A stretch of 64,000 nt of DNA from Stenotrophomonas maltophilia (GTDB taxonomy: Bacteria > Pseudomonadota > Gammaproteobacteria > Xanthomonadales > Xanthomonadaceae): positions 2,121,001 to 2,185,000 of the forward strand of contig NZ_CP154630.1 of assembly GCF_039555535.1 (NCBI RefSeq), written 5' to 3'. Below, in pieces: positions 39,170-64,000 of the stretch. Under the pieces are notes generated by a model. It did no database searches and had not been told where the DNA came from. It saw nothing but the letters and a program-made list of their open reading frames with translations. Every line of letters begins with the position of its first letter. Position 1 is the stretch's first letter. The translations under genes and the position numbers were made by a program.

Positions 39170-39629
39170 GAGGTACGGCCGGGTTGCACCCGGCACCCGC
39201 GGTAGTGCCGGCCGCTGGCCGGCAACCTCAGGAGCAACAGCCGAAGCAACAGCCGGCTTGGCGCGGGATGGCGTGGTGGGTCCGGCTGCAGGGGACGCCG
39301 TAAACCCGTCCATGGGGGCTTGGCCGCGGCATCCATGCCGCGGACACCCCTGCAACCGGCCCCACCCCGCCTTCGACAGATTTCCGCGATCTGCCGGAAC
39401 GGCATGGGGCGACACGCTCTGATCGGCACGGGGTCGGATCCCGTTGCTGCGCAACGGGCTCTGACCCCACGCCCGAATGACGTGGTCTGTTCGATCCATT
39501 GATTCCTGATTCGTGACCGGCTCCAGCGAACCTGACCCGTCCGTTGGCAGTGCGCGGCAGTCATCGCAATGACATGTGCTCCCGGTACGGTTTGATCCGC
39601 TTGCAGCTGCTGTCGCTGCCGAGGGTCAT
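39170..39629. other. Repeat-rich intergenic region before the signalling genes
   Basis: About 460 bp without a gene. It contains a stem GCCGGGT-TGC-ACCCGGC (39179-39195, possible terminator of the Lrp-type gene), a GTAG palindrome TGCCGGCC-GCT-GGCCGGCA (39202-39224), and a 39-bp imperfect palindrome (39430-39468) from GGGGTCGGATCCCGTTGC to its complement, a repeat type common in Xanthomonadaceae. Near its end lies GTCAT-CGCA-ATGAC (39560-39573). Confidence 0.6.
39560..39573. promoter_or_regulatory. Perfect palindrome before the STN gene
   Basis: GTCAT-CGCA-ATGAC, 57 bp upstream of the GTG I use as start (39630). The GTCAT half recalls a Pho-box half-site, but the second half is inverted, so I do not call a Pho box. 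It could be an operator for the whole downstream cluster. Confidence 0.35.
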
Positions 39630-40310
39630 GTGTTCGACGTCAGGGGGCTGAATGGACACCATGCGATCAGAAAGTGGAGGCTGGCCATCGCCGGATGGCT
39701 GCTGCTGGCCTTTGCCGCGGCAGCCCAGGACGGTGTCCATGCCTACGACATCCCCGCGCAGCCGCTGGAACAGGCGGTCGAGCGCTTCAGCGTCATCAGC
39801 GGCTGGTCGGTGATGTACCCGGGCGAGCTTGCCGCGGGCCGCAACAGTCACGCGCTTCGCGAAAGCCTTGCGCCGCTGCCGGCCTTGCAGGTTCTGTTGC
39901 AAGATTCCGGCATCAAGGCCGAGGTGATCGGCGAACAGCGGGTGGTGCTGCGTCGGAGCACGTCCTCGACGGCCGAACCCGGCGTTGGCGCGGAACTTCC
40001 CGATACCGAGCGGCGCCGTCGCTACGCTGGCCTGCAGCAACGCCTGCGCGCTGCGTTCTGTGACGATCCCGACCTGGCTCCAGGTCGCTATGCCGCGACC
40101 CTGCGTTTCAGCGTTGCCAGTGACGGCCAGGTGCATTCCCCTGAACTGCTTTCCGGCAGTGGCAATGCCGGTCGCGATGCGCGCCTGCTGCAGGCGCTGC
40201 AGGCACTGACGGTGGCAGCCGATGCCGCCGCGCTGCCGCAGCCGGTGACGCTGCAGATCCGCCCTTCCGGCACCGACCACGACTGTGGCCGGCGCTCGCC
40301 CCTTCCATGA
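39630..40310 (+). CDS. Barrel-less STN receptor-like signalling protein (VreA type)
   Basis: About 226 residues from the GTG at 39630 (GAGG upstream); an upstream GTG at 39576 is possible. Signal peptide with 'LAIAGWLLLAFAAAA', then an STN domain ('YDIPAQPLEQAVERFSVISG', 'AALPALQVLLQDSGIKAEV'-like 'PALQVLLQDSGI'). No plug or barrel follows. Instead there is a TonB C-terminal-like fold ('GRYAATLRFSVASDGQVHSP', 'LPQPVTLQIRP'). It should act in the periplasm, passing a signal to the FecR protein. P. aeruginosa VreA is the closest layout I know. First gene of the cluster, 16 bp before the sigma factor. Confidence 0.78.
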   Translation: MFDVRGLNGHHAIRKWRLAIAGWLLLAFAAAAQDGVHAYDIPAQPLEQAVERFSVISGWSVMYPGELAAGRNSHALRESLAPLPALQVLLQDSGIKAEVIGEQRVVLRRSTSSTAEPGVGAELPDTERRRRYAGLQQRLRAAFCDDPDLAPGRYAATLRFSVASDGQVHSPELLSGSGNAGRDARLLQALQALTVAADAAALPQPVTLQIRPSGTDHDCGRRSPLP

Positions 40311-40326
40311 TTTCAAGGATTCGAAC

Positions 40327-40857: not shown

Positions 40858-40926
40858 GCGGCGGCATCCGTCTACACTTTGACGCCGAGCAGAACCCCGC
40901 AGCGTGCGGGTCCGGCATGAGTCCCC

Positions 40927-41907
40927 ATGGATCCTGACGATCGCCCGCAACGCCCGCTGGATGCCGTCGAGCGGCAGGCCCACGCGTGGGTGGTGCGGTT
41001 GACCTCGGGCGAGGCCACCGCCGCCGATGGGGACAGGTTCCGCGCGTGGTGTGAGGCCGACCCGCGCCATCGTGAGGCGTTCGGCCGTGCGCGCCGACAA
41101 TGGGAGCAGGTACGCCTGGCGGGCGAGCAGTTGCCTGCAGAGGCACGGCAGCCTGTCGCGCCGACGCCGACCCAGCGCTGGAGCCGCCGTGCCTTCCTCG
41201 GTGCTGCCATCGCGGCGCCGGTCAGCCTGGTGGTGGTGGCGGCGATCCGCCCGCCGCTGGGGTTGTGGCCATCGGTGACGGCGATGGCGGCCGATTTCCA
41301 TACCGGAACCGGTGAACGGCTGCAGATCGCGCCTTCGCCGCAGTTGAAGATCGAACTGGATACGCAGAGCAGCCTGCGCCGGCGGGCGGATGCAAAGGGC
41401 GCAGGCTTCGAGCTGGTGCAGGGCCAGGCCGCGATCGAAACCGGGTCTGGCCTGCGCCTGGCGCTGTTCGCCGGGGCGGGCTGCGTGATTGCCGATGAAG
41501 GTGCGGTGCGCCTGGACGTACGCAACACCCTGGGCCAGGTGCGGGTGACCTGCCTGCACGGTAGTGCGCGCATCGAGCACCCGCAGGGCCGGCTGCAGCT
41601 GCAGGCCGGCCAGCAGACCCGGTACGACGAGCGCCTCAGTGGCGTGGTGGCCGAGGCCGTGGCCTCGGACGTGAGTGCCTGGACCGAAGGCATGCTGGTG
41701 TTCCGCCGCGCACCGCTGCGCGAGGTGGTCGACGAGATCAATCGTTACCGCCGCGGAAAAGTGTTGCTGGGCGAATCGGCGCTGGCACGTGCCCCGGTGA
41801 GCGGCCGCTTCCGCATCGATGATCCGGATGCGGCGCTGGAGCAGCTGCGACTGACGATGTCGCTGGATCTGCGTCGCTTTCCGGGTGGCATCGCCGTCCT
41901 TGGGTAG
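40927..41907 (+). CDS. FecR-type anti-sigma factor (VreR type)
   Basis: 326 residues. N-terminal cytoplasmic sigma-binding part ('WVVRLTSGEATAADGDRFRA', 'CEADPRHREAFGRARRQWEQ'), then a twin-Arg-like membrane segment 'RRAFLGAAIAAPVSLVVVAA', then the periplasmic FecR domain ('FHTGTGERLQIAPSP', 'LDTQSSLRRRADAKG', 'VTCLHGSARIEHP') and a C-terminal STN-like part ('PLREVVDEINRYRRGKVLLG'). It holds the sigma factor and receives the signal of the STN protein. Confidence 0.92.
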   Translation: MDPDDRPQRPLDAVERQAHAWVVRLTSGEATAADGDRFRAWCEADPRHREAFGRARRQWEQVRLAGEQLPAEARQPVAPTPTQRWSRRAFLGAAIAAPVSLVVVAAIRPPLGLWPSVTAMAADFHTGTGERLQIAPSPQLKIELDTQSSLRRRADAKGAGFELVQGQAAIETGSGLRLALFAGAGCVIADEGAVRLDVRNTLGQVRVTCLHGSARIEHPQGRLQLQAGQQTRYDERLSGVVAEAVASDVSAWTEGMLVFRRAPLREVVDEINRYRRGKVLLGESALARAPVSGRFRIDDPDAALEQLRLTMSLDLRRFPGGIAVLG

Positions 41908-41965
41908 ATGAAGACGCTGGCCGTGCGCACCGCGCAGGGCTGTTGCAAGCAAGGAGAGGCCAAGG

Positions 41966-42517
41966 ATGCGCAACGAGACCATCGGCGTGCTGGATCTGCG
42001 CCGCAATCTGTCGGCGCTGCTGGAAACCACGCAGCGACGCCCCTTGATGGTGCATCGCTATGGCTCGCCGTGGGTGTGCGTGGTGTCCGACGCGCAGTGG
42101 CAGCAACAGGCTGTGCTGCTGGACTTCGATCCGCAATCGCATCCGTTGGCGATGCTGCTGCGGCTGCAGCAGCAGCTGTTGCCGTTGTCTGAAAGCGGGG
42201 CACTGCCACCTGCGGCGCTTGCGCGCGCGTTGCTGCTGATGGACATGCATGGCGTTGACGATCTCGTGCAGCTGCACGAGCAGGTGCTGCACCACCGGCT
42301 GTGGCACTGGTTCGTGGCAGGCAGCCACGGCGTGATGGAGGGCTGGCAGCTGCCGGCGCTGCGCGTCGCGGTGGCATCATGGTGCGATGACGTGGACATG
42401 ACCGATGCATGGGTTGCATTCGCCGCGCGCAGCGACGTGGCGATGTTGGCCCGCCGCTGCGGCGGTGACGCGCCACGCCTGCAGCGTGAAGCCTGCAAGC
42501 GGATGGCGCTGCGATGA
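41966..42517 (+). CDS. Phd/YefM-like protein with a long C-terminal extension (first copy)
   Basis: 183 residues. The first 45 residues ('IGVLDLRRNLSALLETTQRR', 'PLMVHRYGSPWVCVVSDAQW') match the Phd/YefM antitoxin fold. The rest (about 130 residues) is helical and not a known toxin-binding tail. No toxin gene is next to it. A second copy follows at 42638. P. aeruginosa PhdA, also in the Vre regulon, is the best analogue. It sits where minor pseudopilin genes would be expected in Hxc-type loci. Possibly a DNA-binding regulator of this cluster. Confidence 0.7.
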   Translation: MRNETIGVLDLRRNLSALLETTQRRPLMVHRYGSPWVCVVSDAQWQQQAVLLDFDPQSHPLAMLLRLQQQLLPLSESGALPPAALARALLLMDMHGVDDLVQLHEQVLHHRLWHWFVAGSHGVMEGWQLPALRVAVASWCDDVDMTDAWVAFAARSDVAMLARRCGGDAPRLQREACKRMALR

Positions 42518-42637
42518 CGTTGCCGATGAAGCACTAACCAGCGCACAGAGTCACGTTCCCGGTGTCGCTTCACCTGCCTTGCTGACGTCTTCTCCAGAGT
42601 ACGACGCACTACGCGTCGCGGAGCGTGGGCGACGCAG

Positions 42638-43219
42638 ATGGCAGAAAGTCGCAGGATCAGCATGCTGGAGCTGGATCGCCACCTGAGCCAGTCGCTGGAG
42701 CAGGCGCGGCACGCCCCCCTGAACGTGCAGCGCTATGGACGTTCATGGGTCTGGGTGCTGTCCAGTGATGCGTGGGCGGACGCGGCGCGCTGGGCTGCGC
42801 TGGACAGCAGTGCGCACCCGCTGCTGGCGCTGCGCAGGGCGCTCGACCTGCAGTTGCGGCCGTGGCCCGAAGCGGCCATGGGCGCGCTGCCGCTTGACGC
42901 GGGCGATGCGCGGCTGCTGCAACGTGCGGCCCTGCTGGTGGTCGTGCGTGATCTCAGCGGCGCGCAGCGCGTGTACGACGACCTGCGCTACCACCAGGCA
43001 TACAGGATGTTCATTGGCCTCGACCACGGTACCGCGTGGTCGCCGATGCAGTGCGTGCGCCTGCTGCAGGCGTGCGTGCATCCGCTGCTGCGGGCGTGCA
43101 TCGACGAAACGCTGGCCAGTGTGCCGCCGCAACTGATCGAGGCGGCACGGGTGCGGGCTGCACGTGCGTCTCCTCTGGCGCCAGCGCAGCGAATTGCAGG
43201 CGGATGTTTATCGTACTGA
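42638..43219 (+). CDS. Phd/YefM-like protein with a long C-terminal extension (second copy)
   Basis: 193 residues. N-terminal 'RISMLELDRHLSQSLEQARH' and 'PLNVQRYGRSWVWVLSSDAW' align with the first copy ('VLDLRRNLSALLETTQRRPL', 'VHRYGSPWVCVVSDAQW'), and the tail has the same layout ('HPLLALRRALDLQLRPWP'; 'HPLAMLLRLQQQLLPLS'). The two genes are therefore a tandem duplication that has diverged. 58 bp before gspG. Confidence 0.68.
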   Translation: MAESRRISMLELDRHLSQSLEQARHAPLNVQRYGRSWVWVLSSDAWADAARWAALDSSAHPLLALRRALDLQLRPWPEAAMGALPLDAGDARLLQRAALLVVVRDLSGAQRVYDDLRYHQAYRMFIGLDHGTAWSPMQCVRLLQACVHPLLRACIDETLASVPPQLIEAARVRAARASPLAPAQRIAGGCLSY

Positions 43220-43276
43220 CACATGCACCGCTGACCATGGCGCAGCGGTCTCTTCCAGGATGACGAGGGCGGAACA

Positions 43277-43714
43277 ATGGCAAGGCAGGTTCGCGGTCGC
43301 AGGGCTCGGCAGCAGGGCTTCAGCCTGATCGAGATCATGGTGGTGGTGGTGATCATCGGCATCCTCGCCGCGTTGATCGTACCGCGGTTGATGGATCGCC
43401 CTGACCAGGCACGCGTGGTCGCGGCGCGACAGGACATCGCGGCGCTGATGCAGGCGTTGAAGTTGTTCAAGCTCGACAATGGGCGCTATCCCAGCGCCGA
43501 GCAAGGGCTGCAGGCACTGGTGAAGCCCCCGCAGGGCAGTGGTGCGATGCCGGTCACGCCCTATCTGGACCGCCTCCCGAATGATCCGTGGGGCCATCCT
43601 TACCAATACCAGATTCCCGGCACCCACGGCGACATCGATGTGTTCTCGCTGGGTGCGGACGGCAAGCCCGGGGGCGACGCCGGGAACGCGGACATCGGCT
43701 CCTGGCAGTTGTGA
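43277..43714 (+). CDS. gspG: Major pseudopilin of the type II secretion system
   Basis: 145 residues. Prepilin cleavage site 'RQQG/FSLIEIMVVVVIIG', then a hydrophobic helix, 'DNGRYPSAEQGLQALV' and 'YLDRLPNDPWGHPYQY' with the Asp-rich 'LGADGKPGGDAGNADIGSW' that binds calcium in GspG. Polymerises into the pseudopilus. A prepilin peptidase is not in the window and must be supplied from elsewhere. Confidence 0.93.
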   Translation: MARQVRGRRARQQGFSLIEIMVVVVIIGILAALIVPRLMDRPDQARVVAARQDIAALMQALKLFKLDNGRYPSAEQGLQALVKPPQGSGAMPVTPYLDRLPNDPWGHPYQYQIPGTHGDIDVFSLGADGKPGGDAGNADIGSWQL

Positions 43715-43723
43715 GGCAGGCCG

Positions 43724-44629
43724 ATGTCAGCCCGGATGCGTTCTGTTTCAAGTGTCCGTCAACGTGGCATGGCGGTGATCGTCGCCCTGCTGGTGGTGGC
43801 GCTGGTGGCGGTAATTGCCACGGCACTGCTGACCCGGCAGTCGGCCCAACTGCGCGCGCTGCGGGGCGACCAGCTGCGCGCGCAGGTGCGCATGGCGGTG
43901 GACGCAACGCTGGAGCGTGCGGCGCAGCAGCTGCGTGAGGATGTAAAGGAACAGCTGACCACGGTGCGCAGCGGGCGCTGGGCGCGTCCCTTGCAGCTTC
44001 AGGCACCGCTGCCGGTGCAGCTGCAACTGGTCGATGCCCAGTCGATGTTCAACCTGCGCAATCTGCTGGCCCATGGCCAGCCGGATCCCGAGGCGCGGCG
44101 CGCGTTCATCGCGTTGTGCGTCGGGCAGGGGTTGGGACAGGGTGCCTGTGCCTCGGCGGCGGACCATATCCAGGCACGCCTGCGCGATGGCGACATCCAG
44201 GCGCAGGCGCCGCTGCCGCGTGAATCACTGATCGAACAGGCGCTGCCGGGTGCCGATCCGGTGGCGTTGCAGGCGCTGGCGCTTCGCACCGTGGTGTTGC
44301 CGGCGCAGACCCTGGTCAACGCCAACACCAGCGACCTGCGCGTTCTGCAGGCGGTGACGCCTGCGGTCGATCCGGCGCGGCTGCAGGCGCTGCTCGGTGA
44401 GCGCGACGCTGGCCATTGGCTGCTCAATCGCGGCGACATCGCCAACCGACTTCAACTGAGCAACGAACAGATGGTCGTGCTTCCCCTGGGTATCCATAGC
44501 GAGTGGTTCCTGGCCATCGGTCAGGTGCAGGCTGACGGCAGCGCGGTTGATTTTCGCGCGCTGCTCTGGCGCGAGTACCGCGACGATGGCGTGCGTGTGC
44601 AACGCGTGTGGACGAGGATCGGCGCATGA
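43724..44629 (+). CDS. gspK: Type II secretion tip pseudopilin
   Basis: 301 residues. N-terminus 'RQRGMAVIVALLVVALVAVI' is the GspK type (Met after the cleaved Gly, no Glu5). The middle part ('VQLQLVDAQSMFNLRNLLA', 'LLNRGDIANRLQLS') and two Cys (ALCVGQ and GACAS) fit GspK. GspK normally caps the pilus with GspI and GspJ, which are missing here. It overlaps gspL by 4 bp. Confidence 0.88.
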   Translation: MSARMRSVSSVRQRGMAVIVALLVVALVAVIATALLTRQSAQLRALRGDQLRAQVRMAVDATLERAAQQLREDVKEQLTTVRSGRWARPLQLQAPLPVQLQLVDAQSMFNLRNLLAHGQPDPEARRAFIALCVGQGLGQGACASAADHIQARLRDGDIQAQAPLPRESLIEQALPGADPVALQALALRTVVLPAQTLVNANTSDLRVLQAVTPAVDPARLQALLGERDAGHWLLNRGDIANRLQLSNEQMVVLPLGIHSEWFLAIGQVQADGSAVDFRALLWREYRDDGVRVQRVWTRIGA

Positions 44630-45789
44630 CCGTGCAGATTCGGGTGCGCCTGCCGGCGCTTGAGCGTCTGCGCGCCGACAGCGCGGTGGACTGGGCGCAG
44701 CTGCACAAGGGCGAGGTGCTGGCGCACGGGCGCGACACGCTGGCGGCGCTGGGCCTGCGGCATCCGCAGGCCGCGGTGCATGCCTGCCTCGATCCGAATG
44801 ACCTGATCCTGCTGGAACTGCAGCTGCCACCGTTGTCCGGGCGCCGCCTGCAGTCGGCGCTGCAGGGTGAGGTGGAGGCGATGCTGCTGGATGACCTGCA
44901 GGAGGTGGCGCTGGCCCACGGTGCGCAGGCGGCGGACGGCACGGTTCCTGTGGCCTGGCTGGGCCAGCAGGCGGTCCTGCAGGCCCAGCAGTTGCTGGCT
45001 TCGTGTGCACTGCGGTTGCAGGCGCTGTATCCGACGCCGCTGCTGCTGCCCTGGCAGGACGGCCATGCCACGCTGCAGGTCAGCGGCGAGCACCTGCTGG
45101 TACGCAGCGGGCGCGATCGGGGTTTCGTTCAATGGTATGGCGGACGGGATGCCTGTGCGGTGATGCAGGCGCAGGCCGTGCGCCTGCAACAGGCCGGCAT
45201 GCAGGCCGTGCAGTGGATTGATGGTGTGCCGCCGACGTGGCCGGAACGTCTGCCCGCCACTGCCATCCCCCATGAACGGCAGGCCTCTGGCCCCTTGCCA
45301 GGCTGGTCATTGCCTCTGCCCGGGGCGGGCCAGAAAGCGCCGCGGCTTGCGATCGGGCTGGCATTGGCGGCGATGTTGCTGGCCGCGCTCGGTCTGCAAC
45401 TGCAGGTCTCGCGGTGGCGAAGTGAGGGCGAGGCCCTGCAACAGGACATGGCACGCCAGTTCAGCGCACGCTTCCCGGAGATCACCGACGTGGTGGACCC
45501 GGTGCTGCAGGCAAGGCGAGCACTGGCCGTGCCACTGCCGGCGCCGCCGTTGCCGCCGCTGCAGCGTCAGGTAGCCGGCATGCTGCAGGTGGTTCCCGAG
45601 CTGGCCGGGCAGGTGCGGAGCCTGCATTACCAGCCCGGGCAGCTGGACATGGAGCTGGATGCCGACGCCCAGGCATTGGCCGACGATCCGCAGCGGCTTG
45701 AGCATTGGCAGCAAGCGGTCCAGGCGCAGGGCCTGCAGTTGGCGCGCGAAGCCGGTGGACGCCTGCGGGTGAGCGGAGCTGGACAGTGA
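44626..45789 (+). CDS. gspL: Type II secretion inner-membrane platform protein L
   Basis: 387 residues starting MTVQIRVRLPALERLRADSA at 44626 (overlap with gspK stop). A cytoplasmic actin-like part ('LLELQLPPLSGRRLQSALQG' then 'EVEAMLLDDLQEVALAHG') is followed by one membrane segment ('IGLALAAMLLAALGLQL') and a periplasmic ferredoxin-like end. It links the ATPase GspE to the pseudopilus. Shorter than many GspL but intact. Confidence 0.88.
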   Translation: MTVQIRVRLPALERLRADSAVDWAQLHKGEVLAHGRDTLAALGLRHPQAAVHACLDPNDLILLELQLPPLSGRRLQSALQGEVEAMLLDDLQEVALAHGAQAADGTVPVAWLGQQAVLQAQQLLASCALRLQALYPTPLLLPWQDGHATLQVSGEHLLVRSGRDRGFVQWYGGRDACAVMQAQAVRLQQAGMQAVQWIDGVPPTWPERLPATAIPHERQASGPLPGWSLPLPGAGQKAPRLAIGLALAAMLLAALGLQLQVSRWRSEGEALQQDMARQFSARFPEITDVVDPVLQARRALAVPLPAPPLPPLQRQVAGMLQVVPELAGQVRSLHYQPGQLDMELDADAQALADDPQRLEHWQQAVQAQGLQLAREAGGRLRVSGAGQ

Positions 45790-46313
45790 CGACCCGGACC
45801 CTGCGGCTGGTCGCGGGAATGACGGGCCTGCAGCAGCGCTGGCAACGCCTGCCACCGCGCGACCGGCTGATGCTGTGGGTGATGGTGGTGGCGCTGCTGG
45901 CGGCGGGTCTGTGGATGTTGTGGCTGGAGCCGCTGCTGAAGCAGCGCACGCACTGGCAGGCCGAGCTGCCGCGGCTGCAGGCGCAGGCGCGTGTCCTGGC
46001 GCCACTGCTGCAGGCACGCGAGCGCCAGCAGCAGACGCAGGGGCAGCGCCCGACGATGGCCAGGTTGCGTGACGAAATCAAGTCGGCCGGACTCGCCGAC
46101 GGACTGCATATCGAAGCGCGCGACGGGCATTGGCACCTGCAGGTTCAGGCGGTGCCCGCTGACGCGCTGTGGAACTGGCTGCTGCCCGTGCTGGCCGATC
46201 CGGCCATCGAACTGCAGCAGCTGCAACTGACACGCACAGGGGATGCGAACATGCCGGCGGCACGGATTTCCGGAAACATCGTGATGGCGCTCAACGTGGG
46301 TGCCCATCCATGA
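45786..46313 (+). CDS. gspM: Type II secretion protein M
   Basis: 175 residues from the GTG at 45786, which overlaps the gspL stop (GTGA). One membrane segment 'LMLWVMVVALLAAGLWMLWL' after a cytoplasmic 'RWQRLPPRDR' is the usual GspM start. The rest is a small periplasmic alpha/beta domain. Overlaps gspD by 4 bp. Confidence 0.85.
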   Translation: MTTRTLRLVAGMTGLQQRWQRLPPRDRLMLWVMVVALLAAGLWMLWLEPLLKQRTHWQAELPRLQAQARVLAPLLQARERQQQTQGQRPTMARLRDEIKSAGLADGLHIEARDGHWHLQVQAVPADALWNWLLPVLADPAIELQQLQLTRTGDANMPAARISGNIVMALNVGAHP

Positions 46314-51540: not shown

Positions 51541-51774
51541 AGTCGGCTCTAGCCGGCCGATTCCATCAGTCGATTCCATCCAGCCGATTCTCCACACAAT
51601 CCTCCACACCTTTTTTCGATCTTCCACAGGTTTCTTAAGCGGCCTGTCATCGGCGGCGACCAGCATAGCCACGTCGCCGCAGAGTGGGCTGGGAGGCCCT
51701 CGGCGGCAGCAGGCGTGTAGTGACCGTTCCTCCCTTGGTGTTTCCCTTCGCAGTAAACCCTTCAGGAGAAGATC
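51541..51774 (+). promoter_or_regulatory. Upstream region of the first DING-like gene
   Basis: 234 bp without a gene. It starts with direct repeats of a CGATTCCATC/CCGATTC type motif (51548-51590) and holds CTGTCAT at 51644-51650, one good Pho-box half-site; the expected second half 11 bp away on either side is poor. A strong ribosome site (AGGAGA) precedes the ATG at 51775. High expression is plausible. Confidence 0.35.
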
Positions 51775-54219: not shown

Positions 54220-54248
54220 GGCGCCGGCGCGATTGCCGGCGCCTTTTT
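54220..54248 (+). terminator. Rho-independent terminator
   Basis: GGCGCCGGC-GCGATT-GCCGGCGCC followed by five T. It separates the DING genes from the giant haemagglutinin gene, which must have its own promoter (54249-54379) or depend on readthrough. Confidence 0.85.
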
Positions 54249-54379
54249 CATTGTGGCGAATGCTTTCTTGATGTCGGCTTCACGCCCCCGGCCTCGTCTA
54301 ACAGGGGCAGGGCACCCATCGCCCCATCCATCAGACAGTGATGCGGCTGCGGCCGCCCAATCAGGTTGACGAGGTCCAG

Positions 54380-57300: not shown

Positions 57301-60300
57301 CCAGGGCAGTGGCAGCCTGTCGCTGACCGATGGCGGGCATGTCCGCATCGGTGGCGAAGGCCAGGCCGCCGGCGTGCTGACGCTGCGCAGCGCACTGTTC
57401 GGCACTGGCTTCAGCCAGTACGACATCAACGCGCACCAGGGTCTTGAAGTGGCCGATGGTGCGCAGGTGGAAGTGGTCATGCCGGGCCTGCGCCTGGCCA
57501 GCGATGCGCTTAAGGCGGTCACCCGCGAGGACGCCGTGCAGGCGTGGCTGGCCCCGCTTTACAGCGCCGATCCGTTGAGCGGCCGCATCAGCCAGCGGGC
57601 CGGTGCGGGCCTGTTGCTGCGCTCGCAGTTCGGTAACCGCGGCGGTGATCTGCGCATCGGCAAGGGTGCCAGCGTGCAGGTTGATCCGGCACAGTCCATT
57701 GAACTGCGGGGCGCGGGCAACATCGCCGTGGAAGGGCGCCTGCACGCGGCCGGTGGCCGGATCCGGCTGGATGACGTGCGCACGGCCATTGATCTGTTTG
57801 ACGGGCAACCCAACAGCCGCACCTACCGCATCGCGGACGGGGCGGAACTGGATGTCAGTGGCGATGCCTTCAGCGTGAAGGATTCAGCCCAGCGGCTGCG
57901 CGGGGGGGTGCGCAAGGGCGGCAGCATCGAGATTGGCGGTGCCCTGGATTGGGAAGGCGCCGGCGACGTCACTGATCGCCCGGTGGATGCGTTCATCGTG
58001 GTCGAGCGGGGTGCGCGGCTGCGTGCCGATGGCAGTTCAACGGCGTTGCATATCGACGGCCAGGGCACCCAGCAGGTGGACAGCGATGGCGGCGAGATCG
58101 TGCTGCGCTCGGCCAATGCACTCTACCTGCAGGGCGATCTGCACGCCGCGGCCGGAGGTGCCGGTGCGCGCGGCGGTACCCTGGGCATCGCCTTCGGCGG
58201 GGGTGTCTACGCACCCAGCGCAAGTGAGGGCGTGCGTGCCCCCCGATTCCTCGCCCTCAGCCAGAAGCGGGAGGAAGCGTCGACGCCGGCGGCACCCACA
58301 TATGGCCACGCGACGCTGTCGGTGGAACAGATCCGCGACGGCGGGTTCGACAACCTGTCGTTGTTCACCGCGGTCCGCAGCCAAGGCGACATCGATCTGC
58401 GGATGGGGCAGAGCCTGCGCCTGGCAGGTTCCGTCGGCGTGTTGCCGGGCGCTGCGGCGGCCCGATCCATCACGCTGCAGGCGCCCTATCTGAAGCTGTC
58501 CGGCCCGAGCTGGGCCGTGATTCCCGGCGAGACCACCGTGGTCAGCGCGGACGTGCCGCTGGCATCCGGGCAGCAGCACCGGCTGCAGGCCGATGCGCAA
58601 CTGATCGATGTGCGCGACACGGTGCGGCTGGATGGTTTTGACGATGTCGCCCTGCGCAGCAGCGGTGACGTGCGGCTGCTGAAGGGCAATCCGCGCGCAG
58701 GTGCGCTCGATACCGAGCTGCTTGCAGCGCGACGCCTGGAGATTACCGCCGCTCAGGTGTATCCGGTGGCCGGCGCGTCCGGTCGGCTTGGCGCCGGGCT
58801 GGATCCTGTCGCCGTTTCAGCCGATCCGCGATGGAAGGATGCGGCCGGCCTGCTGCGCATCAATGGGCTGGGGGGCGTCGCACCGGCAACGCCATTGTCG
58901 GCACTGGGCAGCCTTATGCTCACCGCGGCGACCGTCGAGCAGGCGGGCGTGGTGCGCGCACCCATGGGCAGCATCGTGCTGGGCGGGACCGACAGCAACA
59001 GTGTGCTGGCCTCACGTGTCTCATTGCTGCCGGGGAGCCTGACCTCGACCAGCGGCGCAGGGCTCAGCCTGCCCTATGGTGGCACGCTGGATGGCATCCA
59101 ATGGCGCCTGGATGGTGCAGTCGTTGAGCCGAGGAATGTGGGCGGTGGCGCGCTGCCGATCGGCGTCCGTCTGGTCAGCAGCGAGACCGACGTGGCACCG
59201 GGCGCGGTGCTGGACATGTCGGGTGGCGGTGAGCTGACCGGCGCGGCCTTTGTCAGTGGCCGTGGCGGTTCGGTGGACATCCTGCGCCATGCATTGGCTG
59301 ATGCGAATCCACGCTATGGCTTCAGCCAGCCGGGCAATGAGGTCTACGCCATCGTGCCGGGCTATGCAGGCAGCGCCGCCCCGCTGGGCCTGTCCGATGG
59401 CTCGGCCGATCCGGCCGTGGGCCAGCAGGTCGTGGTGCCGGCAGGCGTGCCGGGCCTGGCAGCGGGCACCTACACGTTGCTGCCGGCCAGCTTTGCGCTG
59501 CAACCAGGGGCGTACCGGGTCGAGCTCGGCGCCAGTGGCGCGACCGGCGCCACGACCGCGTTGGCCACCGGGACCGGCTCATGGCGGGTGGCCGGCCATC
59601 GGGCCGACGCACTGGGCGGTGCGGTATCACCGTTGCTGACGGACCTGCTGCTGACCCCGGCGGCGACCGTGCGACGGCACTCCGGATACAACGAGACCAG
59701 TTACAACGCCTTCGTGACTGCCAGCGCGCAGCGACTGGGCCTGCCACGTGGGTGGCAGACGGTCGATGCGGGCACGCTGCGGCTTGAGCTGGGCGCAGGT
59801 GCCGGCCGCCAGGGGGCCTCTGCATTGCGCTTCCAGGGTGAGGCACGCTTCCAGCCCACCGCTGGCAGTGGCGGGATCGGCGGCAGCGTGGAGGTTGCAC
59901 GGGTCAGCTCGGTGGGCTCGCTGGAGATCATCGCGGCGGGTGGCAACACTGGCACAGACCCGCAGGGGGCGACCATCGAAGCCGATGCGCTCAATGCGCT
60001 GCAGCCTTCGCGGTTGGTCATCAATGCACGCCTGCGCTCGGTCGCACCATCCGTCATCGATGTCATGGGCATTGGCCAGGACGTGGTGGTGCGCAGTGGC
60101 GCCGTGCTGCGCGCGCCGGAAGTCCTGATTGGTGCGGTTGAAGGTGGGCGCGGCATCGTGGTCGAGGCCGGGGCAGGAATCGACACGATTGGGCTGGGCG
60201 CCGCCGGGCTGCCGTCAAGCCTGGGCTATGTCTACCAGGTGGGTGGTGGGCTGCTGGCCGTTTCCAATGACCACCCCGAAGTGCTGGCTGCGGCCACAGG

Positions 60301-63300
60301 AACGGCCGGAACACGCGTCGACATCGACATTGGCGCCTGTGATCCGGGCGCTACCTGCGCCGGCCAGGCCCGCCTGGTATCGGAGGGCAGCATCAATGTT
60401 GCATCCAGTGGGCAGCTGCAGCTGCGCGAGGGCGCCGTGTACGGCACGCGCGAGCTGGCGCTGGGCATGGGCAATATCAACCTGGGCACGGCCGAAGCCA
60501 TCGCGCGGGCGGCGGGTGCCTCGGCGCTGCCACCGGGCCTGATGCTGAACCAGCAGGTCCTGCGCGATCTCCTGCGTGGTAATACGGCTGTCGGCGCGCC
60601 TGCACTGGAGACCCTGCGCCTGAACGCTGCCGAGGCGATCAACGTGTTCGGCAGCGTGGATCTGGACACGCGGGATGCCGCAACGGGCAAGCCGAGCCTG
60701 CGCAGCCTGGTGCTGGGCGCGCCGGCGATCCATGGCTACGGCGACAGCAACGACCGCGCACGCATCTTCGCTGCGGAACTGACCTGGTCGGGCCAGCAGG
60801 GCGCCACGTCGGTACTGGGGGATGCGAAGACGCAGCCGGTGGGGCCAGCAATCGCCAGCCGGTTGGGAAGCGGGCAGCTGGACATCATCACCGACACGCT
60901 GCGGTTGGCACCGTCGACGCGCTCGCGCCCCTCATCGGAAGCCAATGCCGGGCGCCAGGTGCTGGGCTTTGCCGGAGTGAACCTGCAGGCCGCGCGCCAG
61001 CTGGTGTTTGCCGGCAGCGGTGACCTGACGGTCTACCAGCGCCAAGGCGATTACGTGGCGGGCAAGGGCTGGGTGTTCAGTGGGGGCAACCTGGATATCG
61101 AGGCGCCGCTGATCACCGGCGAGGCCGGGGCCAAGCTGGCGGTGAAGACAGGTGGCACATTGTCTGCGCGCAGTACCACGACCGGTGGCAGCGCAGACGC
61201 CCTCGGCGCCGAGCTCGATCTTCGCGCCGGCGACATCGTGCTCGATACACGGTTCGCGCTCGCCTCTGGCAGGTTGTCGGCCAACGCCGACCATTCACTG
61301 CGCCTGGGCAGCCGGGCCGATCTGGATCTCTCCGGGCGCAAGGTCAGCCTGTTCGACGTCGACAATTACAGTTGGGGCGGCGACGCGGAACTCACCGCGG
61401 GCGACGGCAGCGTGCAGACCGACGCGGCCTCGCGCATCGATCTGTCTGCCCGCAACAATCGTGCCGGCCGCCTGACCGTGACCGCACTCGGTGCCAGTGA
61501 TGGGCGTGTCGACCTTGCTGGCCGGATCCTTGGCCAGGCGTCGGGCCGTCAGGACGTGGGCGGCAGCGTGGTGCCCTACGACAGTGGCGAACTGCTGGTC
61601 CGTGCGCAGCAGTTGCACGATTTCAGCGGTCTGAACCAGCGCCTGACCGGCGATGGCGTGACCGGAGCACGCAGCTTCCAGCTCAAGCAGGGCGACCTGC
61701 TGATCGGCGACGAGGTGAAGGCGCGCAAGGTCGATATCAGTGTTGATGGTGGCGCGCTGCAGGTTCGCGGTCGGATCGACGCCAGTGGCGAGCAGGTGGG
61801 CAGCATCCGCCTGGCCGCGCGGGACGGCCTGCAGGTGGATGGCACTCTGGATGCACATGGCACCGCGCTGCGCGTGGACAGCTACGGCGGCATCATCGAC
61901 AGCCCCAACCGCGCCATCGTCGAGCTGGAGAGCCGATCGGGCACGCTGGTACTCGGCCCTGCTGCCAGGGTCGACCTGCGCAGCGGCACCGGGGTCGCGG
62001 TGGGCACGGCGCCTGGCCAGAACGATGGCCGGGCGCGCGGTACGCTCGCGTTGAACGTGCCGCGCAGTGGTGGCTCGGATGCAGCGATCCGTAGTGACGC
62101 AGGGCTGCAGGTGATGGGCGCACGCGATGTGTTCGTCACCGCGGTACGTCGCTATGAGGATGCGCCGCTGGCGACCACGCCGGATGTGAACGGCCATCGC
62201 TCGCAGATGGTCACCCAGGCCTGGCTGGACACCGTGGTGGATCCGGCCAGCACGGCCTGGATGAACGCGGCGCTGGGCAACGCCGATCTGTCGGCGCGCC
62301 TGGCGGCGCTGGGCAGCGTGCGCCTGCGGCCGGGCGTGGACATCATTGGTGTTGCGTCGGCCGCCAATCCCGAGGGCGACCTGACCGTCAGTGGTGACCT
62401 TGACCTGTCCGGCTATCGCTATGGCCCGCAATCCGACCGCCAGGATCCAGCACGCCGCGGTTTCGGTGAATCCGGTGCGATGCGCCTGCGTGCCGCCGGC
62501 GACCTGAATGTCTACGGCAGCATCAACGATGGTTTTGCGCCGCCCCCGGCCAGTCCGGACGACGCGGGCTGGCAACTGGTCGAGGGCGCCGTGTTCGGCC
62601 TCGGTGTCACCCCGTTCGGTGCAGACCTGGTGGCTCCCGGCGATGGCGTCGTGCTGGACATCGGCACGCGGTTCCCGGCCAGCGCGGTGCTGAACTACGC
62701 CATCCAGGTGCAGGCCGTGAAACTTCCGGCGGGCACGACGCTGCCGGTCGACATGACCCTGACCGGGCCTTTGGTATTGCCCGCAGGCACGGTGCTGGCG
62801 GCGGCGGTCAAGCTCGCTGACGGCCAGGTGCATCCGGCGGGCAGCGTACTGGCGCAGCCATTGTCGGTGCCGGCCGGAGCGAAGCTCTCTGCAGGCTTCC
62901 AGCTTCGTGGCGAGGCCAACGTGGCCGGCCACACCTGGCCGGCCGGCGTACCGCTGCCGATCGAACTGCGCCTGGCGGCGCGCACGCCGTTGGCGCGCGG
63001 TGCACTCATCCCCTCGATGGCCACGGTCAAACTACCGGGTGGCACGCCGATCAAGCTGCGGCCGACCGGCAGTGATGGACGCCAGGGACGCAACTGGGCG
63101 TTGGCGCAGATGCTGCCTGAAGGCTCCACTTCCTGGGACGTGTCACTCGTTGCCGGCGCCGACATCGACGCTGCGGACCCGCGTACGCGCCGCTTCGGTG
63201 CAAGCGGTGACCTGACCTTGTCCGATACGCACTACGGTGCGATCCGCGATGCCAGCAAGCAGATGAAGTTCATCCGCGACCGGTTGTTGACCGCAGACGG

Positions 63301-64000
63301 CGCGCAACGGCTGGGGGTTGACGGCTCCTGGGTGGGCCGGACGATCAAGGACCTGGCCGTGCACCTGGGCCGGGAGGAAGATGCACTGTGCAGCGTGGCC
63401 GCGAGCTGCATCACCTCGCCGTATATCTTCACCGAGCTGGGCGCGGAGGAACTCGCGGGCGATCCGTCCCTTGCGGGAACCAGCGTCAGGGAATTCGGCG
63501 AGATGATCGGCATGACCGAGGAGGCCATCTGTGGGCAGCTCAGCGATGGCTTCTGCCTGATGCCGGGCGAGACGCGCGAGGTCACCACGATGGACCCGCC
63601 GCGGCACGGCACACCGATGTGGAGTGTGCTGCGTACGGGCACCGGCGATCTGCAGCTGCTGGCGGCGCGCGATGTGCAGATGCGTTCGGTGTTCGGCGTG
63701 TATACGGCGGGCACCCCTGCATCGCTGGGCAACGGCCACGACGAACGCTTCCAGTCCGAGCGCAGTCCCTTGAACGGGCGCAGCACGTTGTTGGGCCTGC
63801 AGCAGGCCACCGGTGACTATGATGCGGCCCTGGCTGCCTATCGCGCGTGGTATCCCGACCACGGTGGCAATCTGAGCGTGATTGCCGGCCGGGACGTAAT
63901 CGGGGCCACCTGGGCGACCTTGTCGTCCGCAGGTACCGATCGTGACAAGGCCGACAGCGCCAGCAGTTCGGTCGGCGGCTGGTTGTGGCGGCAAGGCACG
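54380..64000 (+). CDS. Giant filamentous-haemagglutinin (TpsA-like) exoprotein, partial
   Basis: Open for 3207 codons from the ATG at 54380 (GAGG upstream) to the window edge; the C-terminus is missing. Long signal peptide 'MSHPLTTVSRPSMLRRSHP' plus 'MAWAVAVALGTVVAPASQAQ'. Residues 60-120 are Gln-rich helical. At about 130-240 lies the TPS/haemagglutination-activity domain ('NWETFNIGGNTTLTFQQN', 'ANGTVFVANRNGVVFGNNSQ', 'VNVRNLVAAA'). Beta-helix repeats fill the rest, and near residue 2780 there are repeats of a 'LPAGT.L...' type. Few cysteines, near residues 1980-2000 and 3010-3060. P. aeruginosa PdtA is the positional analogue. No TpsB transporter is in the window; it may follow on the right. 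Confidence 0.88.
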   Translation, partial: MSHPLTTVSRPSMLRRSHPMAWAVAVALGTVVAPASQAQQAFSPGWFADRGAAQGAAAQSGRMPNGVPIQFQLPAQQQDAARQKLQQSIDNLGTAAQAIALQQRLQEQARQARREAGFIVADGLGKDGLKVDENPLTRGWLNAREAIHSQGSDGRVQVSVEQTADKAILNWETFNIGGNTTLTFQQNADWAVLNRVNDPTARPSQILGQLKANGTVFVANRNGVVFGNNSQVNVRNLVAAAARISDGQFRDNGLFSADGTTAALTEAFGKVMVEQGARIATHDPSSATRGGGYVLLAGSSVENAGQIETRKGQAQLAAGDSFVIRRGVGTAQNTASTTAGNEIAPRFVQGSSAGDVRNSGLIQAREGDITLAGRRVEQAGVAVATTTLGQRGTIHLLNAISDRQGQVTLQSGATTAVLIEDDGKSAVLDSQRDALIKASAEQDVLRAASSAGTFDNLSRLQDRRDQSRVEIVSGGDINFKDGSLTVATGGQVVGDAARRSYVGNAAQVDVSGAVGVRVAMESNNVQVKVQGNELRDSPDNRDNGTLISSEVWIDRRELQRVAAGTGGYAAERWYAGGGLLEVGGYLDNQRHSIGEWAAQGGTVQLNGSEVVTHGGSKINLAGGSLDVQSGVIKQSWLRGTDGRLYRLDDAPAEMQYAGLYKGFEVDHQRWGVNEAFRNPLVAPGERVDNGYTVGRDAGRLVISAPTAVLQGDINTQVFQGAQQAKAPDQGKDGYAQAQTAVARNAQLWLGRYDNAGRNAVFDTQVRIADGAVPVADWTLQAPIPVPQRNTLWLDAGRLSEQQWGRLDLATAGSIGIEGKLRLQDGGQLVLTASDIRLGGDIGIAGGQLQAGNLLAVTGSPVVPLLQAGRGRVEIADGARIDLAGRWSNLLLDPGAAQGQAWSDGGRLQLENSQDVVVGRGSELSVDAGGRVDSAGKARIGKGGSVGLQANTLDTGRGVVGLLSLADDARISALGQGSGSLSLTDGGHVRIGGEGQAAGVLTLRSALFGTGFSQYDINAHQGLEVADGAQVEVVMPGLRLASDALKAVTREDAVQAWLAPLYSADPLSGRISQRAGAGLLLRSQFGNRGGDLRIGKGASVQVDPAQSIELRGAGNIAVEGRLHAAGGRIRLDDVRTAIDLFDGQPNSRTYRIADGAELDVSGDAFSVKDSAQRLRGGVRKGGSIEIGGALDWEGAGDVTDRPVDAFIVVERGARLRADGSSTALHIDGQGTQQVDSDGGEIVLRSANALYLQGDLHAAAGGAGARGGTLGIAFGGGVYAPSASEGVRAPRFLALSQKREEASTPAAPTYGHATLSVEQIRDGGFDNLSLFTAVRSQGDIDLRMGQSLRLAGSVGVLPGAAAARSITLQAPYLKLSGPSWAVIPGETTVVSADVPLASGQQHRLQADAQLIDVRDTVRLDGFDDVALRSSGDVRLLKGNPRAGALDTELLAARRLEITAAQVYPVAGASGRLGAGLDPVAVSADPRWKDAAGLLRINGLGGVAPATPLSALGSLMLTAATVEQAGVVRAPMGSIVLGGTDSNSVLASRVSLLPGSLTSTSGAGLSLPYGGTLDGIQWRLDGAVVEPRNVGGGALPIGVRLVSSETDVAPGAVLDMSGGGELTGAAFVSGRGGSVDILRHALADANPRYGFSQPGNEVYAIVPGYAGSAAPLGLSDGSADPAVGQQVVVPAGVPGLAAGTYTLLPASFALQPGAYRVELGASGATGATTALATGTGSWRVAGHRADALGGAVSPLLTDLLLTPAATVRRHSGYNETSYNAFVTASAQRLGLPRGWQTVDAGTLRLELGAGAGRQGASALRFQGEARFQPTAGSGGIGGSVEVARVSSVGSLEIIAAGGNTGTDPQGATIEADALNALQPSRLVINARLRSVAPSVIDVMGIGQDVVVRSGAVLRAPEVLIGAVEGGRGIVVEAGAGIDTIGLGAAGLPSSLGYVYQVGGGLLAVSNDHPEVLAAATGTAGTRVDIDIGACDPGATCAGQARLVSEGSINVASSGQLQLREGAVYGTRELALGMGNINLGTAEAIARAAGASALPPGLMLNQQVLRDLLRGNTAVGAPALETLRLNAAEAINVFGSVDLDTRDAATGKPSLRSLVLGAPAIHGYGDSNDRARIFAAELTWSGQQGATSVLGDAKTQPVGPAIASRLGSGQLDIITDTLRLAPSTRSRPSSEANAGRQVLGFAGVNLQAARQLVFAGSGDLTVYQRQGDYVAGKGWVFSGGNLDIEAPLITGEAGAKLAVKTGGTLSARSTTTGGSADALGAELDLRAGDIVLDTRFALASGRLSANADHSLRLGSRADLDLSGRKVSLFDVDNYSWGGDAELTAGDGSVQTDAASRIDLSARNNRAGRLTVTALGASDGRVDLAGRILGQASGRQDVGGSVVPYDSGELLVRAQQLHDFSGLNQRLTGDGVTGARSFQLKQGDLLIGDEVKARKVDISVDGGALQVRGRIDASGEQVGSIRLAARDGLQVDGTLDAHGTALRVDSYGGIIDSPNRAIVELESRSGTLVLGPAARVDLRSGTGVAVGTAPGQNDGRARGTLALNVPRSGGSDAAIRSDAGLQVMGARDVFVTAVRRYEDAPLATTPDVNGHRSQMVTQAWLDTVVDPASTAWMNAALGNADLSARLAALGSVRLRPGVDIIGVASAANPEGDLTVSGDLDLSGYRYGPQSDRQDPARRGFGESGAMRLRAAGDLNVYGSINDGFAPPPASPDDAGWQLVEGAVFGLGVTPFGADLVAPGDGVVLDIGTRFPASAVLNYAIQVQAVKLPAGTTLPVDMTLTGPLVLPAGTVLAAAVKLADGQVHPAGSVLAQPLSVPAGAKLSAGFQLRGEANVAGHTWPAGVPLPIELRLAARTPLARGALIPSMATVKLPGGTPIKLRPTGSDGRQGRNWALAQMLPEGSTSWDVSLVAGADIDAADPRTRRFGASGDLTLSDTHYGAIRDASKQMKFIRDRLLTADGAQRLGVDGSWVGRTIKDLAVHLGREEDALCSVAASCITSPYIFTELGAEELAGDPSLAGTSVREFGEMIGMTEEAICGQLSDGFCLMPGETREVTTMDPPRHGTPMWSVLRTGTGDLQLLAARDVQMRSVFGVYTAGTPASLGNGHDERFQSERSPLNGRSTLLGLQQATGDYDAALAAYRAWYPDHGGNLSVIAGRDVIGATWATLSSAGTDRDKADSASSSVGGWLWRQGT

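What the first reader, a model, noticed from the sequence alone, without database searches (positions are those of the whole stretch)
39560..64000. A complete cell-surface-signalling, secretion and adhesin supercluster resembling P. aeruginosa Vre-Hxc-Pdt
Seen: STN protein without barrel, ECF sigma factor, FecR, two Phd-like proteins, gspG-K-L-M-D-E-F, two DING/PstS-like exported proteins and a giant TpsA-like protein, all on one strand in this order. Known: in P. aeruginosa the PUMA3 system (VreA/VreI/VreR) lies beside the Hxc type II system, LapA/LapB-type phosphatases and the PdtA exoprotein, includes a Phd-like protein, and responds to phosphate starvation. Inference: this organism carries the same functional unit in a rearranged, reduced form. 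I know of no description of it as one system in Stenotrophomonas.
Basis: partly seen in the sequence, partly recalled or inferred. Interest (0 to 1): 0.85.

Follow-up and report, generated by a model that had tools for sequence, protein, structure and literature searches.

The report
Secretion gene cluster with exchangeable cargo
A 37-kilobase gene block in Stenotrophomonas carries the same set of genes as a phosphate-starvation signalling and secretion locus known from Pseudomonas, and its two secreted products appear to be swapped between strains as one piece while the secretion machinery stays the same.

Summary
Confirmed, with corrections. The unit runs past the window: about C1:2160170-2197515, 37.3 kb. 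It is not reduced: GspJ-I-H (minus strand), GspC, TpsB, ExbB, ExbD, TonB, a PA0696-type porin, a small exported protein and a third Phd-like protein lie just outside. Pseudomonas relatives carry the same genes in the same order, except that the Phd block and the J-I-H-C block have traded places. This is an orthologous Vre-Hxc-Pdt unit, probably the 'Gsp' type II system of S. maltophilia. Its VreR is in 40 of 91 genomes of the genus. An ECF-type motif lies before phd2, tpsA and tpsB (37 of 38, 35 of 35, 33 of 33 loci) and was not found before vreA, phd1, gspG or DING; vreA has a Pho-box-like site (33 of 33). The spacing fits the published P. aeruginosa pdtA promoter. New here: in 34 Stenotrophomonas loci the two cargo genes, DING and giant TpsA, fall into the same nine allele classes, scattered over the tree of the machine genes like shuffled labels. 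They behave as one exchangeable cassette in a conserved machine. Regulation and secretion in this organism are inferred, not measured.

The parts
39170..39200 (.). left boundary of the presence/absence block (right end at about C1:2197515, in the 3' end of osmC, outside the window)
   Evidence: DNA of non-carriers G308 and G301 matches the window to about 39169 and resumes 22-24 bases later at full coordinate 76514-76515
39560..39575 (.). Pho-box-like site GTCATC-N4-TGACAT, 55-70 bases before vreA
   Evidence: GTCATC-N4-TGA[CA]A in the upstream region of 33 of 33 loci for which it was fetched (alignment of 13); by a simple consensus score 7 sites reach this score in 94 kb, 2.7 expected in shuffles
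39630..40310 (+). VreA-like: STN domain + TonB/TolA-type C-terminal domain, no beta-barrel
   Evidence: Pfam TonB_2 E 2e-5; STN E 0.05 and NCBIfam FecA N-terminus 2e-8, both below cut-off; PDB signalling domains, best E 7e-5; alignment A3 with Pseudomonas VreA-type proteins, 28-33% identity
40327..40857 (+). VreI-like ECF sigma factor
   Evidence: TIGR02937 E 2e-19; 38% to the Pseudomonas unit (median of 3)
40927..41907 (+). VreR-like anti-sigma factor (DUF4880 + FecR)
   Evidence: Pfam
41966..42517 (+). PhdA-type protein 1: Phd/YefM-like N-terminus + degenerate DUF772 (transposase-derived) domain
   Evidence: DUF772 E 0.002, below cut-off; AlphaFold2 pLDDT 80.6 and Foldseek; three Pseudomonas counterparts DUF772 E 6e-14 to 3e-12
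42563..42590 (+). ECF-type promoter motif TGTCG..N..CGTCT before phd2
   Evidence: 37 of 38 loci (the miss is G318, where phd2 is deleted); 3 of 4 hits of the fitted pattern in the whole genome lie in this unit
42638..43219 (+). PhdA-type protein 2
   Evidence: alignments A1/A2, 26% to protein 1
43202..43225 (+). conserved element GGATGTTTATCGTACTGACACATG before gspG, resembling the element before Pseudomonas gspG
   Evidence: core kept in 37 of 37 loci; Pseudomonas sequences
43277..43714 (+). gspG, major pseudopilin
   Evidence: TIGR01710 above cut-off
43724..44629 (+). gspK
   Evidence: Pfam T2SSK
44626..45789 (+). gspL
   Evidence: Pfam T2SSL, GspL_C
45786..46313 (+). gspM
   Evidence: Pfam T2SSM
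46310..48691 (+). gspD secretin
   Evidence: TIGR02517 above cut-off
48688..50121 (+). gspE ATPase
   Evidence: TIGR02533 above cut-off; 71-73% to Pseudomonas and Achromobacter
50129..51328 (+). gspF
   Evidence: Pfam T2SSF
51590..51653 (+). TCCACA repeats and AGGTTTCTTAAGCGGCCTGTCATCGG element before the first DING gene, resembling Pseudomonas AGGTTTTTTCC...CTGTCATCGG
   Evidence: core AAGCG..CTGTCAT in 35 of 36 loci
51775..52959 (+). DING protein 1 (cargo; exchangeable cassette)
   Evidence: PDB 5jk4/5j1d E 5e-166, DING 2q9t; allele classes
53059..54189 (+). DING protein 2 (45% to the first)
   Evidence: PDB 5jk4 E 5e-98; a second copy in 8 of 34 loci
54272..54299 (+). ECF-type promoter motif before tpsA
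   Evidence: 35 of 35 loci; 23 of 23 Stenotrophomonas-type loci of the named scan
54380..64000 (+). tpsA, 4121-residue TPS exoprotein (runs on to C1:2187745)
   Evidence: Pfam TPS E 4.5e-26; L003; 43% to Pseudomonas over nearly the whole length

Best explanation
The locus is the Stenotrophomonas ortholog of the Pseudomonas Vre-Hxc-Pdt unit: one phosphate-starvation programme that builds a type II secretion system for DING phosphate-binding exoproteins and a two-partner system for a giant surface protein. Proposed working: (1) low phosphate activates PhoB, which turns on vreA-vreI-vreR at the Pho-box-like site (inferred from the conserved site and from P. aeruginosa); (2) VreA, a periplasmic STN-TonB hybrid, passes a second, unknown signal to VreR, which frees sigma VreI (inferred); (3) sigma VreI reads the promoters before phd2, tpsA and tpsB-exbB-exbD-tonB-porin (motif shown, activity inferred); (4) the 11-gene Gsp machine exports the DING protein(s), TpsB exports TpsA (inferred; DING export mainly by Hxc was shown in P. 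fluorescens SBW25, PMC2225411). Shown here by sequence: DING and TpsA have a history of their own, shared with each other and not with the genes on both sides; recombination that replaces the two together, between strains and species of the genus, is the simplest cause.
For: Full gene content and order against Pseudomonas loci: G881, G894, G902, G903 and named P. brassicacearum, P. parasichuanensis, P. viridiflava and others. TpsA 43%, gspE 71%, exbD 72%, tpsB 53% (medians of 4). PAO1 gene list, with tonB4 and the PA0696 porin, from PMC7035377 and PMC2729926 (passages). ECF motif: at the expected place before phd2, tpsA, tpsB in 37 of 38, 35 of 35, 33 of 33 loci and before none of four other genes; genome-wide 4 hits, 3 of them in the unit; the step from -34 to -11 fits the published mutational map of the pdtA promoter (PMC4971064, section 21), and 12 of 13 named Pseudomonas tpsA genes carry pho box + GTTC[AG]GT + C[CG]GCC. 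Cassette: distance correlations, identical nine-class partitions, AU tests and shuffle-like scatter on the machine tree.
Against: No expression, secretion or phosphate data for this organism. No pho box is evident before tpsA or phd2 in Stenotrophomonas, unlike Pseudomonas. The motif pattern was fitted to the three window sites; with one mismatch allowed it gives 3 hits in the window where shuffles give 1.15 (10 of 100 shuffles reach 3). With the strict Stenotrophomonas-like pattern only 3 of 13 Pseudomonas and 2 of 8 Alcaligenaceae tpsA upstream regions match (12.8% of shuffles do); the composite Pseudomonas pattern was written after seeing such sequences. The pho box CTGTCACAAAACTGT before tpsB is kept in only 20 of 33 loci. 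Regulator proteins are weakly conserved (VreA 28-33%, VreR 34%, VreI 38%). In SBW25 hxcR itself is not phosphate-induced (PMC2225411). Linkage alone, DING lying next to TpsA, is enough to explain why the two travel together.
Confidence: 0.82

Rival explanations
1. The neighbours are separate systems (an ECF signalling set, a general T2SS, a phosphate-binding gene pair, an adhesin) that happen to lie together, with no common function.
For: The modules do occur apart: G896 and G905 have only phd-tpsB-exbB-exbD-tonB-porin in the stretch fetched; G836 has vre, tpsA and tpsB without T2SS on a 48-kb contig; Achromobacter 'A' systems lack DING and tpsA. In SBW25 psp and hxcR are under different promoters. 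Within the unit the ECF motif is not before gspG or DING.
Against: The same set in the same order in two families, present or absent as one 37-kb block at the azlC/osmC site, and a motif rare in the genome before three of its transcription units.
Confidence: 0.08
2. The T2SS exports the TpsA protein or helps to anchor it, so that type II and two-partner secretion form one joint export route for one surface structure made of DING and TpsA.
For: DING and TpsA form one exchange unit with identical allele classes; the T2SS core, DING and TpsA are adjacent also in Achromobacter and Bordetella ansorpii.
Against: A dedicated TpsB lies in the unit; the TPS domain of TpsA is among its conserved parts (residues 1-400, identity 0.79-0.86 between classes); G836 has tpsA and tpsB without a T2SS on its contig.
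Confidence: 0.12
3. The apparent cassette exchange is only fast divergence of secreted proteins on one common history.
For: Secreted proteins often diverge fast; the middle of TpsA is most variable.
Against: Same-class TpsA is 87.6% identical between different machine clusters (50 pairs), but 66.5% between classes inside one machine cluster (233 pairs); class labels on the machine tree need 14 changes against 14.8 for shuffled labels; AU p 1e-45 and 8e-91 against one clade for the two big classes.
Confidence: 0.03

Closest known systems
P. aeruginosa PUMA3 (VreA-VreI-VreR) with Hxc T2SS, LapA/LapB, PdtA-PhdA-PdtB, ExbB2-ExbD2-TonB4, PA0696 (PMC2729926, PMC4971064, PMC7035377: passages read, one section of PMC4971064)
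   Same: Same gene set and domain architectures, including the barrel-less STN + TonB/TolA-type VreA; same core order G-K-L-M-D-E-F, DING, TpsA, TpsB, ExbB, ExbD, TonB, porin (order checked on other Pseudomonas species, not on P. aeruginosa DNA); same spacing of the ECF motif.
   Different: Phd genes between vreR and gspG instead of between tpsA and tpsB; J-I-H-C between tpsA and tpsB instead of before gspG; three Phd-like genes; after the porin come phd3 and osmC instead of PA0697-PA0699; no evident pho box before tpsA.
P. fluorescens SBW25 hxc-psp locus (PMC2225411: abstract and passages read)
   Same: 11-gene Hxc system, then a DING gene, then a 4083-residue haemagglutinin; DING export mainly by Hxc and induction of psp by low phosphate were shown there.
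   Different: Second DING copies in some Stenotrophomonas; allele exchange not mentioned in the passages I saw.
S. maltophilia Gsp T2SS (Karaba et al. 2013, not looked up; named in reviews PMC11089167 and PMC5003817, passages read)
   Same: Second T2SS besides Xps, 11 genes; this genome has four secretin matches: this one, a second T2SS cluster, PilQ and a short secretin.
   Different: Identity of that Gsp locus with this one is inferred; strain K279a was not examined.
DING systems of Achromobacter and Bordetella ansorpii (loci L149, L169, L172, L175, L178, L180, L191)
   Same: T2SS core followed by DING and TpsA.
   Different: No ECF motif before tpsA above chance (2 of 8 by the strict pattern, 0 of 8 by the composite one; the 8 include Paenalcaligenes L187); vre genes not seen in the stretches.

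Membership tests
Vre-Hxc-Pdt unit | barrel-less VreA with STN and TolA/TonB-type CTD | tested here: met
   (STN matches weak); architecture as in PMC2729926
Vre-Hxc-Pdt unit | vreA-vreI-vreR order, ECF sigma and FecR-type anti-sigma | tested here: met
Vre-Hxc-Pdt unit | complete T2SS of the Hxc clade beside it | tested here: met
   11 genes (GspI from position and N-terminus only); GspE groups with Pseudomonas and DING-linked Alcaligenaceae, support 89/92, below the 95/80 star; Lysobacteraceae systems of G199 and G234 elsewhere
Vre-Hxc-Pdt unit | TpsA/TpsB pair with ExbB-ExbD-TonB and PA0696-type porin | tested here: met
Vre-Hxc-Pdt unit | DING/Lap-type cargo next to gspF | tested here: met
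Vre-Hxc-Pdt unit | pho box and sigma VreI promoter before pdtA and phdA homologues | tested here: inconclusive
   ECF-type motif present with the right spacing; pho box not evident at these two promoters, present before vreA
Vre-Hxc-Pdt unit | induction by phosphate starvation | not testable with these tools
   needs transcription data
Hxc T2SS | liposecretin HxcQ with lipid anchor (recalled from memory) | tested here: inconclusive
   N-terminus of window GspD has ...ALIVCMAHAP..., not a standard lipobox by inspection
Phd/YefM antitoxins | Phd/YefM DNA-binding fold | tested here: met
   for protein 1 only: Foldseek ranks 1-26, TM-score to target up to 0.85, but E-values 0.16 and worse
Phd/YefM antitoxins | partner toxin next door | tested here: not met
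   neighbours are fecR, gspG, porin and osmC; C-terminus is DUF772-like instead

The most novel reading that the evidence does not exclude
DING and TpsA form a matched pair that defines an unrecognised 'surface type' of the S. maltophilia complex: nine classes in 34 loci, exchanged between species as one cassette through the conserved ends (DING start; TpsA secretion domain and last 300 residues), displayed only in phosphate starvation, with the DING protein held by or working on the TpsA fibre.
Probability: 0.3. Interest if true: 0.78.

Novelty: new variant of a known kind. Interest (0 to 1): 0.6.

Why it matters
It gives the Gsp type II system of Stenotrophomonas a probable cargo (DING), a probable trigger (phosphate starvation plus a cell-surface signal) and a concrete promoter motif, all testable with deletions and reporter fusions. 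It also shows that the cargo genes of a T2SS/TPS locus can be exchanged as one block inside an otherwise stable machine, which points to strong selection on what is displayed or released, and suggests that DING and TpsA may work together.

Tried and rejected
A search of VreA in 274 genomes of the class at E 1e-6 found only the window's genome and one weak partial hit, so ExbB was used instead. A proteomics paper that names a phosphate-binding protein of S. maltophilia (PMC9960084, passages) was dropped as evidence: the spot is listed with 16 kDa. The gspG pattern was mistyped and matched 0 of 38; some patterns there ran over the whole locus, so the counts by place replace them. The second regular expression had a gap one base too long and is not used. 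Searching for P. aeruginosa itself failed.

Rows dropped before counts: of 40 carriers 38 were fetched (not G273, G297); of 38, four were left out of the cassette analysis (G271 contig end, G277 broken frames, G318 internal deletion, G298 half fetched), leaving 34. vreA, orfX, exbB, exbD, tonB and porin have fewer than 34 sequences. The machine mean there includes gspD, gspE, gspF, vreR and tpsB themselves. In one search, regions not fetched are left out of each n.
Full report
What is there. The window is C1:2121001-2185000 of a 4.83-Mb genome, close to Stenotrophomonas hibiscicola, S. sepilia and S. maltophilia by its GspE (97-99%). From 39630 on it encodes, all on the plus strand: a VreA-like protein, an ECF sigma factor, a FecR protein, two Phd-like proteins, gspG-K-L-M-D-E-F, two DING proteins and the start of a giant TPS protein. 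Sequence beyond the window adds the end of TpsA (4121 residues in all), gspJ-I-H on the minus strand, gspC, a small exported protein (orfX, minus strand), TpsB (POTRA + ShlB), an ExbB with DUF2341 and laminin-G-like domains, ExbD, TonB, a Porin_5 protein and a third Phd-like protein. The T2SS thus has 11 genes, the number given for each of the two T2SS loci of S. maltophilia K279a in a review (PMC11089167, passage). The genome has four secretin matches: this one, one in a second T2SS cluster (L050), PilQ and a short 451-residue secretin.

Extent and distribution. A search with VreR finds it in 40 of 91 genomes of the genus at E 1e-60 (39 of 86 of high quality). 38 of these loci, the window's included, were mapped: in 37 the genes found are in the same order and on the same strands; G318 has a large internal deletion; G277, a metagenome-assembled genome, has gspK, gspD and tpsA in broken frames, which may be sequence error; G271 is cut by its contig and G298 was half fetched. 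The left neighbour is azlC in 9 of the 12 loci for which it was fetched. The other three are the most divergent (VreR 64-66%): in G312 and G271 a tRNA-Ser gene ends about 200 bases before vreA, in G323 the neighbour was not worked out. So the unit sits in at least two places of the chromosome. Of 19 non-carriers searched with azlC, 3 have it at E 1e-40; in two of these (G308, G301) the match to the window's flanks jumps from 39169 to 76514-76515 (3' end of osmC) over 22-24 bases, so there the unit is absent as one block of about 37.3 kb; the third (G300) has no osmC there. Elsewhere in the family, 19 genomes outside the genus with good GspE matches were looked at in stretches of mostly 20 kb and none shows vre, DING or tpsA; one more (G016) has a short contig with exbB-exbD-tonB-porin. 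ExbB of this type is found in 16 of 274 genomes of the class and 9 of 299 of the phylum at E 1e-60.

Comparison with Pseudomonas. In an unnamed genus that includes P. parasichuanensis (G902 and L181 share contig length and gene content), 18 of 59 genomes have the TpsB. Of the 11 of these fetched, four (G881, G894, G902, G903) show the order J H (C) I, G K L M D E F, DING, tpsA, phd, tpsB, exbB, exbD, tonB, porin; before it, vreI-vreR was detected in G881, G902 and G903, vreA in G902 and orfX in G881 and G902. G920 has DING and tpsA but no T2SS in the 15 kb beyond; G896 and G905 have only the phd-to-porin part. Named Pseudomonas loci (L173, L181, L183, L184, L193, L194, L198) repeat the first half, five of the seven up to DING and tpsA with vreI and vreR, L184 and L173 likewise (L198 ends the match at gspF). 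PAO1's own list (PMC2729926, PMC7035377, passages) reads the same way. In Stenotrophomonas the phd block and the J-I-H-C block have changed places; the rest is collinear. Median identity to the four Pseudomonas: exbD 72, gspE 71, gspG 66, gspF 66, gspD 58, tpsB 53, exbB 52, porin 47, tpsA 43, DING 42, and over three VreI 38, VreR 34%. The GspE tree puts window, Pseudomonas and 7 of 8 DING-linked Alcaligenaceae systems together (89/92), apart from the systems of G199 and G234 of the window's own family, which suggests lateral spread; it does not tell direction. G+C is 0.68 in the unit's window part against 0.66 before it, no island signal.

Regulatory sequences. Alignments and a recount by place in up to 38 loci show three kinds. 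(a) Before vreA, GTCATC-N4-TGA[CA]A in 33 of 33: Pho-box-like, 11-base repeat. (b) Before phd2 (37 of 38; the miss is the deleted G318), tpsA (35 of 35) and tpsB (33 of 33): TG[TG]CG, with CGTC starting 23 bases after the first T. The same pattern is absent before vreA (0 of 33), phd1 (0 of 38), gspG (0 of 37) and DING (0 of 36). The pattern fitted to the three window sites hits the whole genome four times, three of them these; read backwards it hits 11 times. With one mismatch it gives 3 hits in the window against 1.15 in shuffles, 10 of 100 shuffles reaching 3. It was fitted after the fact, so the weight lies on conservation and on the match with Pseudomonas. There, 12 of 13 named tpsA genes have TGAA..TGACA (pho box), GTTC[AG]GT and, 23 bases after its G, CGCC (9) or GGCC (3); 0 of 8 Alcaligenaceae do (a pattern written after seeing Pseudomonas sequences). 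By the strict pattern it is 23 of 23 Stenotrophomonas-type loci, 3 of 13 Pseudomonas and 2 of 8 Alcaligenaceae, with 12.8% of shuffles. The published map of the pdtA promoter puts the needed bases at -34 to -30, -11 to -5, and the pho box halves at -40 to -45 and -50 to -56 (PMC4971064, section 21); counted from CGTC/CGCC at -11, the motif and pho box of these Pseudomonas fall on or within a base of those places. (c) Before gspG (37 of 37) and before DING (35 of 36), two elements ending in CTGACA or CTGTCAT that resemble those before the same genes in Pseudomonas.

Cargo cassette. In 34 Stenotrophomonas loci I compared protein distances of 24 genes. Nineteen of the 22 non-cargo genes follow the mean of five machine genes (gspD, gspE, gspF, vreR, tpsB, themselves among the 19) with rho 0.84-0.97; exbD, tonB and porin, with 30 sequences each, with 0.54-0.66. 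DING1 and TpsA follow each other (0.86) and not the machine (0.13, 0.21). Single linkage at 17% gives nine classes for TpsA (13, 9, 3, 3, 2, 1, 1, 1, 1) and the identical nine for DING1. Between classes, inside one machine cluster (233 pairs), TpsA is 66.5% and DING1 71.6% identical, while the genes next to them, gspF and gspJ, are 97.7% and 92.1%; within a class, across machine clusters (50 pairs), TpsA is 87.6%. On a tree of 12 machine proteins the five classes with more than one member need 14 changes, shuffled labels 14.8 (as low in 79 of 200); the two large classes as one clade are rejected (AU p 1e-45 and 8e-91). The tree is a quick one and 11 of its 31 inner branches are weak. TpsA keeps its first 400 residues (0.79-0.86) and last 300 (0.85-0.90) between classes, the middle falls to 0.41. 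A second DING copy is present in 8 of 34 loci, of four kinds. Physical linkage is enough to explain joint travel; a functional pair is my bolder reading.

Parts. DING1 matches solved DING structures, best 5jk4 and 5j1d at E 5e-166; that these come from S. maltophilia is recalled and fits the paper title cited. In SBW25 the DING protein Psp is exported mainly by Hxc and induced by low phosphate, while hxcR is not (PMC2225411, abstract and passages). The Phd-like proteins have a Phd/YefM-type N-terminus and, in Pseudomonas clearly (DUF772 E 6e-14), in Stenotrophomonas faintly, a transposase-derived domain; they lack a toxin partner, so a DNA-binding regulator is more likely than an antitoxin (inference).

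Verdict. The unit is a known kind; the rearranged order and above all the exchangeable DING-TpsA cassette are what I did not find described in the listings.

Noticed in passing
L080:8424-8516 (G312) and L079:11062-11154 (G271): In the two loci of the most divergent lineage a tRNA-Ser (gct) gene ends about 200 bases before vreA, unlike the azlC neighbour elsewhere: the block may have entered the genus more than once, or moved.
   Followed up: partly
L003:14882-15217 (minus strand); relatives: orfX, a small exported protein of about 110 residues without Pfam hit, is in 33 of 34 Stenotrophomonas loci, in Pseudomonas G881 and G902 and in G836, which has no T2SS on its contig; it ends in a conserved RMG[ND]..FG.S..PQRP-like motif: an unnamed component of the TpsA/TpsB part.
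   Followed up: partly
L004:2970-7949: What looks like a second cell-surface signalling set (ECF sigma, FecR, large TonB-receptor-like protein; read by eye) lies just beyond osmC, next to the block.
   Followed up: no
window 41966-43219, L004:1879-2208, L106:10387-10989: PhdA-type proteins join a Phd/YefM-like domain to a DUF772 transposase-derived domain, a likely domesticated transposase piece; the third Stenotrophomonas copy is short and lacks it.
   Followed up: partly
window 39630-40310: VreA-type proteins share two invariant cysteines (C144, C219 of the window protein) in 8 of 8 aligned, a possible disulfide.
   Followed up: no
window 51590-51630: Three TCCACA repeats before DING1, where Pseudomonas has CCCGAG repeats at a similar place; binding factor unknown.
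   Followed up: no
L095/L094 (G318) and L082 (G277): G318 has lost everything between phd1 and the porin; G277 (a metagenome-assembled genome) has broken frames in gspK, gspD and tpsA, perhaps sequence error. The unit seems dispensable.
   Followed up: partly
L149/L199, L172/L176, L175/L179, L180/L148: Achromobacter and Bordetella ansorpii genomes carry two Hxc-like T2SS, one with DING and TpsA, one without in the stretch held.
   Followed up: no
L131; P0047: A contig filed under a Rickettsia endosymbiont and a protein filed under Nocardiopsis are close to Stenotrophomonas (GspE 97%, VreA 82%): probable contamination of those records.
   Followed up: no
G000:C1:783460-783487 (minus), L120: The only hit of the fitted ECF motif outside the unit; its gene context was not worked out.
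   Followed up: no
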